Positions 1,640-8,044 of a stretch of DNA of 8,044 nt are shown in pieces. The DNA comes from a bacterium. GTDB lineage: Bacteria > UBP15 > UBA6099 > DSWB01. The position numbers and the translations under genes are program-made. How positions within the stretch are numbered: position 1 is the first letter of the stretch; every line of letters starts with the position of its first letter. Where the stretch lies: NCBI GenBank assembly GCA_020061125.1, contig JAGUYV010000132.1, positions 1 through 8,044 of the forward strand, in the 5' to 3' direction. The notes beneath the pieces were generated by a model. It saw only the letters and a program-made list of their open reading frames with translations, did not search any database and was not told where the DNA came from.

Positions 1640-3094
1640 ATGAGAGTTTTATTCATTCAGGACAACGGCATCAACGAATCCCTGGCCCTGTGCGAGCTGT
1701 CTGCGCTTCTCAAGGCGCACGGGCACGAGACCGCGGTTCTGCTGGAGCGCGAGGAACGGGATCTGGATGCGGCAATCGAGGCGTTCGCCCCGGACTGGTT
1801 TCTGATCCCGTGCTCAATCCTTGCGCACACCTGGGCGCTGGGCATCGCGCGGCGCATCAGGGCGCGGTTTCCGGGCCGCCCCGTAATTTTTGGGGGCACG
1901 CACCCCACATTTTATCCCGAGATCGTGGAGTCGCCGGATATTGACGCCATCATCGTGGGCGAAGCCGAGGGCGCGGCGCTCGACATCTGCGAGGCGCTGG
2001 CGCGGGGCGATGATTTCGCGGACATTCCCAATGTATGGCTCATGCGCGACGGGCAGGTTGTGCGCAACGAAAAACGGCCGCTTCTCGCGCCCCTGGACGA
2101 CTTGCCCCTGCCCGACCGCGGCATGTATTTCCGCTACCCGTTCCTGCGCGCGTTCGGATGGAAAAAATTCATGAGCGGGCGCGGGTGCTATCACTCGTGC
2201 GCATACTGCTACAACCCGAAAATCCGAGAGAGCTACCACGGGCTGGGCGTGTATGTGCGCCGCAAGTCCCCGGAGCGCGCCGTGGCCGAAGTCCTGTGGA
2301 TGAAGCAGAACGCGAATCTTAAAATCGCGCATTTTTCCGACGACCTGTTCATTTCAGACGAGGACTGGGCCGAGGAATTCAGCGAACGGTACAGGAGAGA
2401 AATTGGCGGTGTGCCGTTCACCTGCAACGCGACCGTGGACCTGGTCCGGGAAAAATCCGTGGCCGCTCTGGCCCGGGCCGGGTGCCGCGCCGTGGCCATC
2501 GGCATCGAAACCGGGGACGAAACCCTGCGCCGCATGATCATGAAAAAGGACATTACCGACGATCAGATCCGGGACGCCGCGGCCCTGCTCAAAAAGCACG
2601 GCGTCATGGTGGTCACCTTCAATATGATCGGCAATCCCGGCGAAACCATGGAAAGCGCGTTCCGCACCATGGAGCTGAACGCGGAAATCGGCGCGGACTG
2701 CGCGCGGCTCACCTTCGGCATCCCCCTGCCGCGCACGCGTTACGCGGATTACGCCGTGGATATCGGAGTGTTGGCCCCGGACGACGCCGCGCGCCTGCCG
2801 GACATCACGGACATCGCCGCGGCCGGGCCGCACCCCATTTTCAAGACGGATAACGCGCGCGAGTTGATTAATCTTTACTATTTGTTCCGGCTGGGCGTGG
2901 CGCGGCCCGGGCTGATTCCCCTCATCAAAAAAGCCGTGCGCTGCCCGGTTCCGTTCGTGTTCAAGCCCTTCAGCCTAAACATGTTCCTGGTGGAAAAGCG
3001 CATGTTCAACCTGGGCTGGTTCGAGGGCTTCCGCTACTACCTGCATGTAGGCTCCCCGGACCGGCGAACCACGAATTTCGTTTTTCTGATCTGA
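1640..3094 (+). CDS. B12-binding-domain radical SAM protein (class B type)
   Basis: The 484-residue protein has the two-domain layout of cobalamin-dependent (class B) radical SAM enzymes, many of which methylate unactivated carbon or remodel rings. Residues 1-140 look like a B12-binding Rossmann domain: MRVLFIQ start, an L/A-rich helix to HGHE (30), and VIFGGTHPTFYPEIVES with DAIIVGEAE at 82-110. The DxHxxG cobalamin-ligand motif is absent, which is common in this class. The radical SAM motif CX3CX2C is Cys183, Cys187, Cys190 (GRGCYHSCAYCYNP). Further core signs are FSDDLF at 232-237, CNATVDLV at 262-269, AIGIETGDETLRRM at 286-299 and FNMIGNPGET at 327-336. The C-terminal 80 residues, typical of the family's variable tail, give no clear clue to the substrate. 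ATG 1640 is the first start after an in-frame TAA (1625-1627), yet no Shine-Dalgarno precedes it. An SCP2-like gene follows 133 bases downstream with its own promoter. The reaction and substrate are unknown; HpnP-like lipid methylation is only one option. Confidence 0.88.
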   Translation: MRVLFIQDNGINESLALCELSALLKAHGHETAVLLEREERDLDAAIEAFAPDWFLIPCSILAHTWALGIARRIRARFPGRPVIFGGTHPTFYPEIVESPDIDAIIVGEAEGAALDICEALARGDDFADIPNVWLMRDGQVVRNEKRPLLAPLDDLPLPDRGMYFRYPFLRAFGWKKFMSGRGCYHSCAYCYNPKIRESYHGLGVYVRRKSPERAVAEVLWMKQNANLKIAHFSDDLFISDEDWAEEFSERYRREIGGVPFTCNATVDLVREKSVAALARAGCRAVAIGIETGDETLRRMIMKKDITDDQIRDAAALLKKHGVMVVTFNMIGNPGETMESAFRTMELNAEIGADCARLTFGIPLPRTRYADYAVDIGVLAPDDAARLPDITDIAAAGPHPIFKTDNARELINLYYLFRLGVARPGLIPLIKKAVRCPVPFVFKPFSLNMFLVEKRMFNLGWFEGFRYYLHVGSPDRRTTNFVFLI

Positions 3095-3227: not shown

Positions 3228-3608
3228 ATGGCAGACCTGAACAATCTCACAATGCAAGACCTGCTGGGCGCGCTGAACAAGCTCGTGAAAAGCGACTTCG
3301 AGGGCCGGCACGTGTTCGATGTGACCGTGTTCGACGATGACGGCAACGAAAAGGAAAAGATGGGCATCATCGTGGAGCCGGGCAAGGTGGAAATGATCGA
3401 GGGCGAAAGCGGCGATGAGAACGCCGTTCTGTTCCACATCAAGAAGAATGCCGTGGAAACCATGAAGGCCATGCAGACCGAGGGCCTGGACGCCGCCATG
3501 CGCTTCATGTTCGACGGCTCCATCTACACCACCAACCCGGCCGGCGCGCAGGCGTGGTTCGAGATCTTCGAGATCGGCGAAGAGCCTCTGACCAAAGCTC
3601 TGGGCTGA
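3228..3608 (+). CDS. small SCP2-like (sterol/lipid carrier fold) protein
   Basis: The 126-residue acidic product has no signal peptide or membrane segment and should be cytoplasmic. Its pattern fits the SCP2 lipid-binding fold: an N-terminal helix (residues 7-22, LTMQDLLGALNKLVKS), strands FDVTVFDDDG and MGIIVEPGKVEMIEGE (30-60), then ENAVLFHIKKNAVETMKAM at 64-82 (the 'd..i.i....l..l' strand-helix) and GLDAAMRFMFDGSIYTTN at 86-103, like the family's '..afm.GkikikG' segment. SCP2 proteins carry or present lipids and other hydrophobic ligands; stand-alone bacterial ones of about 100-130 residues are common and mostly uncharacterised. The match is by pattern and not strong in every part, so a different small alpha/beta fold is possible. 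GGAGG at 3216-3220, seven bases before ATG 3228, supports the start. The gene has its own promoter (3138-3167) and terminator (3648-3678), so it is probably mainly monocistronic despite lying behind the radical SAM gene. Confidence 0.6.
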   Translation: MADLNNLTMQDLLGALNKLVKSDFEGRHVFDVTVFDDDGNEKEKMGIIVEPGKVEMIEGESGDENAVLFHIKKNAVETMKAMQTEGLDAAMRFMFDGSIYTTNPAGAQAWFEIFEIGEEPLTKALG

Positions 3609-3704: not shown

Positions 3705-6700
3705 TTATTTGAATCGCGTCTGTGTTTCCATGCTGAAAGTGGTGACGGGCAGGGTGCCCGCCGCGGCGCCGCTCGGGGTGGCGGTGCGGCTGTATTTGAG
3801 GGACAGGTTCGTGTCCTCGGTCATCTTCCACACGAAATCCATGCTCTGTGTGGTGCTGCGCCTCGGGGTGGCGCCGAGCGTCCTGTTGAAGGAAAGCCGC
3901 GTGTTGAGCGTGAGGCCTGTCAGCAACTGATATCCCAGGGACAGGCTGGAGTTGCGCGTGGGCGCGGTGCTGCCCTCGGAGCGGTCGGTTTTCGCGGACA
4001 CGCGGATTTTCTTCGAGGCGTCGAAATCCAGCACCAGGGTCGAGGTTTGCGAGGTCGTGAGGGTTTCGGCGCCGCCGGTGGTGAAGTTCCGGTTGCTTGT
4101 GCTGTTCTCGGTTCTCGTGTACGAAGTGGACGGATTGTACTTGGATTTCGGCAGTTTGTATTCCACGGTCCATTTGTACCCGCGTGAGTAGTTGTAGCTC
4201 TTGGTTTCGGTCATGGACACATTTCTGTTGTACGATGGCAGGAACTTGAGATAGTTCTTGTACTGGGTGTTGAAGGACACTGTGAGGCTGTCGGAGCGGC
4301 GGGTGTCGGGGTTGTCCGTGGACCCGCCGGGCGTGTCCTGCCTTCGGAAATTGAAGTTGAGGTTTTCGATGGCCCACAGGGGCATGAACTGGAGGTTGTA
4401 GGCAATGTCCTGCACCTCGGAGAAATCAGAACCGTAGCGCGGGCGCGTGTCCGTGTCCTTGTATTCGAGGCGCAGCTCCTTGACATAAGGGATGGCGCGG
4501 AAATTCAGAGAGTAGGCCTTGGCCTCGGACTTGTTGCCGTCGCTGGAGTGCGAATCGCTCATGGCCACATTCAGATCGTACTTGCGCGACGGGGTGTATT
4601 TGAACGCGAAGTTGGATACCGCGGACTCGGTATTGGGCTTGCTGCCGATCCTGTATTCGTAAGCGTTCTTGCTGATGTTGCCGGTGATGGCGTAAACATT
4701 TTTTCGCATGGAGAGCAGAAAATCCAGGGAATCAATGGTGTTCTCTTCATCGGTGAATGTGCGCGTGGTTTCGTCCGCGCCGGTGAAGCCTTTGGACGCC
4801 TTGGTGTCCCGCGACAGCTTAAGGGCCTTGAGGCTTCCGGACGAGTAGCTCAAGCTCATCTTTTCGTTGTCGCGGTCGGTGTTGGAGGACAGCACGCCGG
4901 TCTCGTTGTCCACGACCTGCTCGGTCGCCTGTCTCCATTCGTAGTTCATCTTCCACTTCTTTTTGAATGTCCAGGCCACATCGCCGCCGAGGTGATCCAC
5001 CACGCTGTCGTTGAGCAGGGACACGGCGGTGTCGAACAGGGGGTCGCGGCCGCGTTTGAGCAGGTTCACCTGCAGGTTTTTGCTCCGGTAGGCGGTGTCA
5101 ATGAAATACGCGTCGCCGGTGACGACCTTGTCGAGTTTCTGTTCATAGGTGTAGATCACGAAGAACTTGTCGCCCTGGTTGGGGAAGCGCACGATGCTGC
5201 CGTAGTCCTTGAGCCATTCGCCGCGCTCGAAGGTGATGGTTCCCTTGTCCTTGTCCACGCGGCTGCGGGGCACCAGGATGTCGTAAGTCACCGTGTCGTA
5301 CAGAGTGCAGACTTCGAGCGCGTTGTCGAATTCATTGCACAACTGCACCTTGACGATCACGGCGCCGTAAACGCCTGTGCGCGTGAGGCGGCAGGTGAGC
5401 TTGTCGTCCGATGATTTGATGGCGTCGGCCGTGGGGTCGTAGGTGCAGTTGGGCTTGACGATCGTCGAGGTGTTGATTTCGAGAGTGTTGGGGTCCACGA
5501 TGATCTGGTCTTCGTTGGTGTTGAAGCTTGCGGACAAGTCCGAATTGGCCTGGGCGTATTCGGCCTTGATTTCGATTTTCTTGCCGACTTTGATATTGGT
5601 GTCCACGCCCCAGGCCACTTTCTGGAACTCGGATCCGCCGGCCGAATCCGGGGGCACGGGGGTGTATAGAACCTTGAGCACAGGTTTGTCCACCACGCCG
5701 CCGTAGATGCGGATCAGGGTGTCGAATCCGGTGATTTCGAATTCGTATTTGTGGTTCGAGTTGCCGAACACGCCCGGGCAGAAAGAGGATTTGTCCGTGT
5801 CGCCCTCGGATTCGTCGCTGTAGCACACAATGTTGTCCGCGCCCTCGGTGACATCGTATTGCTCGTCGTCGGACAGGTACAGGATTTCGCTGCCGGGGAA
5901 CATGTCCGTGGGCCAGCGGCCTTCGGTGTCAATGCGCACCTCGCTGCTGCCCTGGCTCGCGGCGCTGATGGGGAACAGAACAAATGCGCGCTGGGTCAGA
6001 TTCACGGGGTTGTAGTATGTGTAGGTGACGCTCATTTTCACGGACGGAAATTTGGTGGTGTCCACGAAGAACCGGCCCTCGAGGTGCCCGCGATGGTCTA
6101 TGTAAATATATTTGCTGTCCTGGTTGTATGTGGCGGTGTCGGAAGAGATTTCGTTTTTGATTTCGATGGAGCCTTCCACGATGTGGGTGTGGGCGAGCTT
6201 GATCTCGAAGCATTTGCGGCCCTCGCCGAAATACCCGCAGTCGAAAGATTTGGTCGTGCCGGTGGATTCCTCGGGGGTGATGACCTGGGCCTCGGTCACG
6301 GCCTCGGTGGTCACGAGCCTGGACTGGGCCGTGCTTTTCGGGGACATGGTGGTGATGTAGGTGGAACCGATTTTCACATTTTCGTTGCCGGACTGGTAGT
6401 CCGCCCGGAAAGCCCGGATGTTGCCGGTCGAGAACAGCAGGGACGACTGCTGGTATTTGACGATCACGGTTTCGTTGTTCTGCAGAGGCTGCTTGAAGGT
6501 GATCTGGTTGCGGCCGAAATCAATGATGTATTCGCTGGAGGACAGAATCTCGTTCTGACGGTAGACCGTCACGCTTGCGGGGATGATGGCCGCGCCCTGG
6601 ATGTTGAGGCTGTAGGGTCCGACGCTTCCGTTTCCCTTGATGTTGGCGTCCGGTCCGGGAGAGCTTTTAAGTTCGGCGAGCAGGCCGCGGAACGAGAGGC

Positions 6701-8044
6701 CCTTGTGTTTGTGTATGAGCTGCAGGCCGGTCACATCGCTGGCCTTGAGCGCGGTGAGCTTGCTGTCCACCATGGACGCGCTGAAATCCCCGAATCGCGC
6801 CGTGGTGTCCTGCCCGATCATTTCCATGTTCAGGCGCTGCTCCATGTTCGGCTCGTCCACGAGCGACCCCTGAAGGCGCACGCCGTTGCGCAGGCTGCCG
6901 TTCATGCCCAGGTTCCAGCGCTGCTCCAGGAAGTACTTCTTGACGCGCACATTCTGCGTGGCGCCGGTCTGTTCGTCTGAAAATTGGCCCACGACCGCGG
7001 TGCGCTGCACTTCGTTCTTGTTGCTGATGTTGAAAGCCACGGTGCCGCTCACCTTGAACGAGCCGGAGCACAGGGTGGCGGGCAGGTCCTTGTCGCAGCC
7101 CGCTTCCGAAGGTTTCACCGTTACGGCCGCGCCGTGCCGCGCCAGCTTGCTGCCCGGCCGCGACACCGGCACCTTCACTTCCTCCAGAGTGATCTGCTCG
7201 TCCGTGGTCTGCTTCATGCCCTTGAAGTACAGGGACACCAGGGTCACGGGCATTGTCTCCAGCACGGTTGCGTCCGAGAGCGTGAGATCCAGTCCCACCT
7301 GGATGTCAATCTCGCCCTTGTTACGGTCCACCCGGTTCACGAATCCCATGTTGAAGTACTCGTTGAGTTCCACTGCGGCGGCCTCCTGGCCGCGCGAGTC
7401 CGTGTAAGTGAACGCGGAGGGATCGTACTTGACCTTGAACGCGGCCGCGGCCAGCATCTCGTTTTGCGGGAATTTGGTGATCACCACATCGAGTCGCACC
7501 CACTGGCGCAGGCCGATGGTTGCCTGGCGCTTGCTGAACTCGATGACCACATCCGCGTCCGCGTCGCCCGATGCTTCCTCAAGGGCTGATATCCCGAGGC
7601 TGGCCTCCATGATGGACGCCTTGCGCTCCGGGGCCGTGAACTCGATTTCATTGTGCAGGGCCGTGGCCGTGAGCGTGCTGTTCTCGCCCTCGAGGGACGA
7701 CAGCAGCAGCGGGTCCAGTTCGCCCTTGTATCCGGCCAGGCGCTGATATCCCGAGTTGGCCGTAACCCGTTCCATGTTTTCCGCATATATGGACGATGTG
7801 AATGTGATGGACGAAAGGCCCGGCTGCATGAACTTGAGCGGAATGCGCAGCAGAATCTTGTTTTCTGACAGAGGCTTGTCTGTCTGCACTCTGTAAACCA
7901 GCGCGCCGTTCAGGGAATCCACGGTGAATTTCTCGACCTTGCTGAAAGCGGGATCGCTGGCGTAGTGCGTGCGGTCCGACAGGAGCATGACATATTCGGG
8001 GTTCACGGACAGGGAGACCCATGCGCCGCGCACGGACTCGCCGG
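3705..8044 (-). CDS. giant SprA-like outer-membrane protein with cohesin-like domain (5' end outside window)
   Basis: The reading frame stays open to the right edge (GGC GAG TCC precede the GTG at 8033), so the true start and signal peptide are not visible. Residues are counted from that GTG; 1442 lie downstream of it. Residues 160-290 resemble a cohesin-like beta-sandwich: VRLDVVITKFPQNEMLAAAA, then FKVKYDPSAFTY, NKGEIDIQVGL and VTLVSLYFKG. Residues 410-966 hold several beta modules like those of SprA/large surface proteins; the clearest is GPYSLN...IIPASVTV...EYIIDFGRNQITF...VIVKY at 472-527, with looser copies near 609-675, 692-792 and 885-965. From about 966 to 1442 alternating hydrophobic/polar strands with aromatic ends and polar loops suggest an outer-membrane barrel, ending TTFSMETQTRFK. 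Ten cysteines fall in five close pairs. T9SS SprA forms a very large barrel translocon, but similarity here is of pattern only, so transport, adhesion or scaffold roles remain open. A lone cohesin-like domain does not prove cellulosome function. Confidence 0.75.
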   Translation of the reverse strand, partial: GESVRGAWVSLSVNPEYVMLLSDRTHYASDPAFSKVEKFTVDSLNGALVYRVQTDKPLSENKILLRIPLKFMQPGLSSITFTSSIYAENMERVTANSGYQRLAGYKGELDPLLLSSLEGENSTLTATALHNEIEFTAPERKASIMEASLGISALEEASGDADADVVIEFSKRQATIGLRQWVRLDVVITKFPQNEMLAAAAFKVKYDPSAFTYTDSRGQEAAAVELNEYFNMGFVNRVDRNKGEIDIQVGLDLTLSDATVLETMPVTLVSLYFKGMKQTTDEQITLEEVKVPVSRPGSKLARHGAAVTVKPSEAGCDKDLPATLCSGSFKVSGTVAFNISNKNEVQRTAVVGQFSDEQTGATQNVRVKKYFLEQRWNLGMNGSLRNGVRLQGSLVDEPNMEQRLNMEMIGQDTTARFGDFSASMVDSKLTALKASDVTGLQLIHKHKGLSFRGLLAELKSSPGPDANIKGNGSVGPYSLNIQGAAIIPASVTVYRQNEILSSSEYIIDFGRNQITFKQPLQNNETVIVKYQQSSLLFSTGNIRAFRADYQSGNENVKIGSTYITTMSPKSTAQSRLVTTEAVTEAQVITPEESTGTTKSFDCGYFGEGRKCFEIKLAHTHIVEGSIEIKNEISSDTATYNQDSKYIYIDHRGHLEGRFFVDTTKFPSVKMSVTYTYYNPVNLTQRAFVLFPISAASQGSSEVRIDTEGRWPTDMFPGSEILYLSDDEQYDVTEGADNIVCYSDESEGDTDKSSFCPGVFGNSNHKYEFEITGFDTLIRIYGGVVDKPVLKVLYTPVPPDSAGGSEFQKVAWGVDTNIKVGKKIEIKAEYAQANSDLSASFNTNEDQIIVDPNTLEINTSTIVKPNCTYDPTADAIKSSDDKLTCRLTRTGVYGAVIVKVQLCNEFDNALEVCTLYDTVTYDILVPRSRVDKDKGTITFERGEWLKDYGSIVRFPNQGDKFFVIYTYEQKLDKVVTGDAYFIDTAYRSKNLQVNLLKRGRDPLFDTAVSLLNDSVVDHLGGDVAWTFKKKWKMNYEWRQATEQVVDNETGVLSSNTDRDNEKMSLSYSSGSLKALKLSRDTKASKGFTGADETTRTFTDEENTIDSLDFLLSMRKNVYAITGNISKNAYEYRIGSKPNTESAVSNFAFKYTPSRKYDLNVAMSDSHSSDGNKSEAKAYSLNFRAIPYVKELRLEYKDTDTRPRYGSDFSEVQDIAYNLQFMPLWAIENLNFNFRRQDTPGGSTDNPDTRRSDSLTVSFNTQYKNYLKFLPSYNRNVSMTETKSYNYSRGYKWTVEYKLPKSKYNPSTSYTRTENSTSNRNFTTGGAETLTTSQTSTLVLDFDASKKIRVSAKTDRSEGSTAPTRNSSLSLGYQLLTGLTLNTRLSFNRTLGATPRRSTTQSMDFVWKMTEDTNLSLKYSRTATPSGAAAGTLPVTTFSMETQTRFK

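What the first reader, a model, noticed from the sequence alone, without database searches (positions are those of the whole stretch)
3705..8044. Giant SprA-like surface/outer-membrane protein carrying a cohesin-like domain
Seen: a >1,445-residue open frame with a cohesin-like sandwich (about residues 160-290 from the GTG at 8033), repeated Y-x-I-D...I-x-F beta modules (472-965) and a barrel-like C-terminus. Known: SprA is the roughly 2,400-residue barrel of the type IX secretion translocon of Bacteroidota; cohesin domains mediate dockerin binding or occur in surface and secretin-like proteins. Inference: a shorter, differently built relative outside classical T9SS could be a translocon or scaffold.
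Basis: partly seen in the sequence, partly recalled or inferred. Interest (0 to 1): 0.6.

Follow-up and report, generated by a model that had tools for sequence, protein, structure and literature searches.

The report
Cohesin-bearing SprA-like outer-membrane barrel
A bacterium of a little-known candidate phylum (UBP15) encodes a large outer-membrane barrel protein, distantly related to the Bacteroidota protein-secretion channel SprA, that carries two 'cohesin' docking modules, while the same genomes put 'dockerin' tags on the ends of exported proteins; this suggests, but does not prove, a tag-and-receptor route to the cell surface.

Summary
An open frame of 1,445 residues (3705-8042, minus strand) runs off the contig end. 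Orthologues in six genomes of the same order (UBP15 MAGs) reach about 1,590-1,660 residues, start with a signal peptide and follow rsmI, so the GTG at 8033 is not the start; about 85-90 residues are missing.

Cohesin is confirmed, and there are two. In an orthologue model both match solved cohesins (Z 15 and 14), domain 2 specifically type II; domain 2 is the best-conserved part of the protein.

SprA-likeness is right at superfamily level, wrong as membership: profile-profile comparison with SprA gives E 1.1e-15 over 407 columns (reversed control 0.009), but nothing in the order passes the SprA cut-off. The C-terminus is predicted as a barrel wall; closure is unproven.

New here: all seven genomes carry dockerin-like domains at the extreme C-terminus of exported, mostly large proteins. 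I propose that the barrel protein is their outer-membrane receptor, possibly a translocon. No binding or transport was shown, and other cohesin proteins exist in these genomes.

The parts
3705..8042 (-). Gene for cohesin-bearing SprA-like outer-membrane protein, 5' end cut by the contig end; stop codon at 3705-3707
7722..8042 (-). Cohesin domain 1 (residues 1-107), N-terminal strands missing in the window
   Evidence: Position by alignment with L055 residues 31-137; orthologues pass PF00963; orthologue model residues 1-136 match 2vo8 Z 15.4 and 2jh2_B Z 15.3, rmsd 1.9 over 127 residues
7107..7565 (-). Cohesin domain 2 (residues 160-312), type II-like; best-conserved part
   Evidence: Pfam 13.8 bits, below cut-off, residues 182-215; orthologue model residues 195-387 match type II cohesins Z 13.9, rmsd 2.9-3.0 over 141-145 residues; 41-45% identity against 19-24% in the barrel
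6633..7109 (-). Strand-rich region (residues 312-470) with conserved Cys pair 316/325 and GDF motif, homologous to the N-terminal strand region of SprA
   Evidence: strand region of the family alone: 91.1%, E 1e-6
5148..6632 (-). Hairpin-module region (residues 471-965; about four modules with Y-x-I/V-D...I-x-F pattern)
   Evidence: module shared with SprA
3708..5147 (-). C-terminal beta-barrel region (residues 966-1445); strands of residues 1141-1442 (3717-4622) best supported

Best explanation
It is an outer-membrane protein of the SprA superfamily: signal peptide, two cohesins, a strand region and hairpin modules homologous to SprA's N-terminal half, then a large C-terminal barrel. Shown: the architecture, the remote homology, and the presence in all seven genomes of dockerin-like domains at the extreme C-terminus of exported proteins. 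Inferred: the cohesins face the periplasm, because they sit where SprA has its periplasmic N-terminal extension; they bind the C-terminal dockerin tags of exported proteins and bring these to the barrel, which threads them through or holds them at the outer membrane, as SprA does with C-terminal-domain cargo.
For: Two cohesin folds; domain 1 over the Pfam cut-off in orthologues. Domain 2 is the most conserved segment, as expected of a binding part. Homology to SprA with negative controls. All seven genomes match the C-terminal dockerin profile, 2-8 matches each; in all 30 fetched loci the domain is the last thing before the stop codon, in proteins of about 325-2,050 residues, many with visible signal peptides. 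Dockerin_1 passes its cut-off in all seven. Sister genomes place a PorV-family protein (191 bits, cut-off 90) and a protein with a T9SS-type C-terminal domain beside a cohesin-less SprA-like paralogue, so SprA-like barrels in this order keep T9SS-like company. SprA's extended N-terminus is tied to the periplasmic part of the translocon (PMC10994853).
Against: No binding, localisation or transport data. Other cohesin proteins exist (a lipoprotein-like protein at G000:C118 next to a protein with an N-terminal dockerin; a conserved protein of about 735-750 residues), and any of them could be the partner. Dockerin and cohesin domains also occur in other phyla (17 and 21 of about 110 genomes). In one set of proteins of genus g3 the first dockerin F-hand is degenerate. 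The barrel model has low overall confidence (pLDDT 52.6) and the C-terminal barrel shows no significant sequence similarity to SprA (8.1%). No linkage of this gene to dockerin genes or to PorV.
Confidence: 0.45

Rival explanations
1. Surface anchor: the cohesins reach the outside and the barrel only fixes them in the membrane, so that dockerin-tagged proteins secreted by another route are held on the cell surface, as an anchoring scaffoldin does in Gram-positive cellulosome bacteria.
For: Tandem cohesins, domain 2 closest to type II cohesins, the type used for cell-surface anchoring in cellulosome bacteria (the role is from general knowledge); dockerin-tagged exported proteins in the same genomes.
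Against: The cohesins lie N-terminal to the barrel and before a region homologous to SprA, whose N-terminal extension is on the periplasmic side.
Confidence: 0.2
2. The cohesin folds are structural: they line or plug the periplasmic end of a transport or adhesion barrel, or join copies of it, and bind no dockerin.
For: Proteins not known for dockerin binding share the fold, for example the pilins among the structural matches (9m00). Domain 2 scores below the Pfam cut-off and has a long insertion in orthologues. Cohesin-less paralogues of the same barrel exist in the same genomes.
Against: Domain 2 is better conserved than the barrel, and C-terminal dockerins are present in every genome.
Confidence: 0.28
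3. It is the SprA/Sov of an ordinary type IX secretion system.
For: Homology to SprA; PorV-family and CTD-like proteins in sister genomes.
Against: No match over the TIGR04189 cut-off in any of seven genomes; about 1,590-1,660 residues instead of 1,897-2,203 in the SprA proteins compared; no T9SS CTD match in its own genome; cohesins in place of the SprA_N profile; several paralogues per genome.
Confidence: 0.05

Closest known systems
SprA/Sov, T9SS outer-membrane translocon (TIGR04189; PDB 6h3i, 6h3j, 8gl6, 8gl8)
   Same: Homologous strand region and hairpin modules (E 1.1e-15 over 407 columns); Foldseek's best outer-membrane match; the VIA alignment to 6h3i has the lowest rmsd of the 50 rows listed, 3.8 over 237 residues, Z 12.7.
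   Different: Shorter, carries two cohesins, not over the family cut-off, several paralogues per genome, no significant sequence similarity in the C-terminal barrel.
Cohesin domains: C. perfringens cohesin-like modules (2jh2, 2vo8) for domain 1; type II cohesins of Acetivibrio and Clostridium (3fnk, 1qzn, 5g5d) for domain 2
   Same: Fold, Z 15 and 14; domain 1 over the PF00963 cut-off in three orthologues.
   Different: On a Gram-negative outer-membrane barrel, not on a scaffoldin or glycoside hydrolase; domain 2 has an insertion in orthologues.
Short SprA-like proteins of about 830-1,180 residues in many other phyla (alignment A7)
   Same: Strand region plus GPY...GSE...Y-x-I-D...I-T-F module (99.6%, E 1.3e-24).
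   Different: No cohesin in those scanned with Pfam, and too short to hold two.

Membership tests
SprA/Sov (TIGR04189 equivalog) | Score over the curated cut-off of 200 bits | tested here: not met
   0 of 7 genomes; best 34.9 bits, in a paralogue
SprA/Sov (TIGR04189 equivalog) | SprA_N domain (PF14349) | tested here: not met
   Absent from the Pfam scans of the window protein and orthologues; found in control SprA proteins
SprA/Sov (TIGR04189 equivalog) | 36-strand barrel with lateral opening | tested here: inconclusive
   About 17 strands predicted with fair confidence, more upstream at low confidence; closure and strand number not settled
SprA superfamily (homology only) | Significant profile-profile similarity, with controls | tested here: met
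   98.6%, E 1.1e-15, 407 columns; reversed 4.4%; shuffled 0.0-0.1%; without paralogues 95.4% over 90-100 columns
Type IX secretion system | Cargo with T9SS C-terminal domain (TIGR04183) | tested here: inconclusive
   None in the window's own genome, which is only 78.8% complete; one to three weak or marginal matches in each of the six sister genomes
Type IX secretion system | PorV/PorQ shuttle | tested here: inconclusive
   Over cut-off in G002, near-identical homologue in G004, below cut-off in G001; not searched genome-wide in the window's genome
Type IX secretion system | GldM/PorM motor | tested here: inconclusive
   No match, but the SprA-bearing genomes taken as controls were silent too
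Cohesin (PF00963) | Profile score over the cut-off | tested here: met
   Domain 1 in orthologues of G004, G006 and G005; in the window itself only 13.8-18.5 bits, domain 2
Cohesin (PF00963) | Cohesin fold | tested here: met
   Orthologue model, both domains, Z 13.9-15.4
Cohesin (PF00963) | Binds a dockerin | not testable with these tools
   Candidate partners exist; no binding data

The most novel reading that the evidence does not exclude
A dockerin-addressed branch of SprA-type secretion outside Bacteroidota: exported proteins carry a C-terminal dockerin as sorting signal, read in the periplasm by cohesins built into a SprA-like outer-membrane translocon.
Probability: 0.22. Interest if true: 0.85.

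Novelty: new variant of a known kind. Interest (0 to 1): 0.6.

Why it matters
Cohesin-dockerin pairs are known above all as the glue of cellulosomes, and SprA as a channel of Bacteroidota. A natural protein that joins a SprA-type barrel to cohesins, in genomes with C-terminally dockerin-tagged exported proteins, would be a new use of the pair (sorting or display at the outer membrane) and would show that the SprA superfamily serves other tag systems. Cohesins and dockerin tails are small and can be tested in vitro. I found no description of such an architecture in the open library searched, which does not hold most subscription papers.

Tried and rejected
First genome-contig scan with the single protein: nothing; with the alignment: six orthologues. 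Sequence search against PDB with the window protein or A4: nothing; with A3 only a type II cohesin at E 0.24. PorP and GldM: no match, but controls silent, so no conclusion. TIGR04183: few weak matches, not read as a T9SS. Taxonomy look-up failed on the underscore. A simple alternation score for amphipathic strands did not separate the C-terminal barrel from shuffles (22 against 18.4; 65 of 500 shuffles as high), so it is not used as evidence. Considered and rejected: chance ORF; SprA as a strict equivalog. The DUF2460/phage-tail matches are read as the shared hairpin module, not as a phage origin.

Full report
The thing itself. The window is one whole contig (G000:C392) of a 4.1 Mb, 513-contig genome, 78.8% complete. 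The minus-strand frame 3705-8042 has 1,445 codons without a stop and runs off the contig end. Six other genomes of the same order hold an orthologue; matching contigs in GTDB are named bacterium UBP15_UBA6099, ADurb.Bin236 and similar MAGs. Copies that reach the 5' end begin with a hydrophobic signal peptide and directly follow rsmI (rsmI and signal peptide by reading the sequence, not by a profile run). Window residue 1 aligns about 85-90 residues inside the gene. So the gene is real and the GTG at 8033 is an internal codon.

Two cohesins. The window protein alone gives only a sub-threshold Pfam match (13.8 bits, residues 182-215). Orthologues show why: the domain that scores is an earlier one, cut in the window. 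It reaches 27.2 and 26.9 bits against a cut-off of 24.1 and 33.4 bits in G005:C256; in the closely related G002 copy it stays just below (22.5 bits). A model of the orthologue L055 (613 residues, seven sequences, pLDDT 63) has two fairly well predicted sandwiches. Residues 1-136 match C. perfringens cohesin modules (2vo8 Z 15.4, 2jh2_B Z 15.3, rmsd 1.9, 127 residues) and residues 195-387 match type II cohesins (3fnk Z 13.9, 145 residues, rmsd 3.0). Foldseek agrees (2jh2_B, TM 0.82 by target), though its three top rows are other multi-domain surface proteins. The model is of an orthologue, so the fold of the window's own domain 2 follows by 41% identity. Domain 2 is the best-conserved segment: 41-45% identity against 19-24% in the C-terminal barrel.

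SprA relationship. The SprA profile TIGR04189 gives no match over its cut-off in the seven genomes; its weak matches fall in paralogues, nearly all at one module around positions 590-690. An alignment of orthologues and paralogues (A4) was compared with nine proteins that all match TIGR04189 (A6): 98.6% probability, E 1.1e-15, 407 columns, covering the strand region and modules. Reversing A4 gives 4.4% (E 0.009) and shuffling its columns 0.0-0.1%; the strand region alone 91.1%; the C-terminal barrel alone 8.1%; the cohesin-bearing orthologues without paralogues 95.4% over 90-100 columns, that is, one module. So the longer homology rests on the paralogues. The A4 profile also finds matches in 91 of 283 genomes outside the order (98 of 290 in all), mostly in frames of about 850-1,200 or 1,600-2,200 residues; two of the long ones were scanned and are SprA, one was not recognised. 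The family is therefore one branch of a broad superfamily.

Barrel. The model of window residues 312-1445 is poor overall (pLDDT 52.6) but residues 1141-1442 form about 17 strands of 10-15 residues at pLDDT roughly 65-87. Among Foldseek's rows the first outer-membrane protein is SprA (8gl8 E 1.6e-6; apolipoprotein B ranks first overall); VIA finds many barrels (MtrB Z 15.2, rmsd 6.8) and SprA 6h3i with the lowest rmsd among the 50 rows listed (3.8 over 237 residues, Z 12.7). This supports a barrel wall; strand number and closure remain open.

Dockerins. Dockerin_1 passes its cut-off in all seven genomes. Eleven C-terminal tails (A5) show two F-hand repeats and, in ten, a cysteine near the very end. 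A5 matches 2-8 proteins per genome. In all 30 fetched loci the domain is the last thing before the stop codon; the distance from the last recognised motif to the stop is 13-72 residues. In genus g3 some of these proteins have both F-hands intact and others have a degenerate first one while the cysteines remain. Background: 17 of about 110 genomes of other phyla match A5 at 1e-6, and 21 of about 110 have a cohesin match at 1e-4, so the domains as such are not special to this order; their C-terminal placement together with the barrel protein is what is notable.

Neighbouring evidence. In G002 (L036) and G004 (L040) a cohesin-less SprA-like paralogue lies near a PorV-family protein (191 bits, cut-off 90) and a large protein whose C-terminus resembles T9SS C-terminal domains (PorZ and PorU tails, far below their equivalog cut-offs). 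This shows SprA-like barrels of the order in T9SS-like company, but not for the window's gene.

Mechanism. SprA's extended N-terminus is tied to the periplasmic part of the translocon, and its cargo is recognised by a C-terminal domain (PMC10994853). Transferred here: periplasmic cohesins would read a C-terminal dockerin and present cargo to the barrel. Architecture and homology are shown; topology is inferred from homology; binding and transport are hypothesis. Surface anchoring and a purely structural role remain serious rivals.

Noticed in passing
G002:C45 (L036:5137-13950) and G004:C52 (L040:1527-10934): A SprA-like paralogue (1,165 aa) sits with a PorV-family protein and a 1,329-1,525 aa protein with a T9SS-type C-terminal domain: a possible T9SS-like module outside Bacteroidota.
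   Followed up: partly
G000:C118 (L062:1-3646): A cohesin-bearing lipoprotein-like gene (464 aa, PF00963 36.7 bits) lies next to a protein with an N-terminal dockerin-like repeat.
   Followed up: partly
G001:C117 (L071:2162-6239): A PorV-like protein (65 bits, below cut-off) two genes from a protein with a C-terminal dockerin.
   Followed up: no
G002:C157 (L034:4845-9284), G004:C11 (L038:6578-11101): SprA-like paralogues with long Pro/Lys/Glu-rich N-terminal stretches before the barrel part.
   Followed up: no
window 1640-3094: B12-binding radical SAM protein, closest to HpnJ-type models but far below their cut-offs.
   Followed up: no
window 3228-3608: 126-aa frame without a family match over any cut-off.
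   Followed up: no
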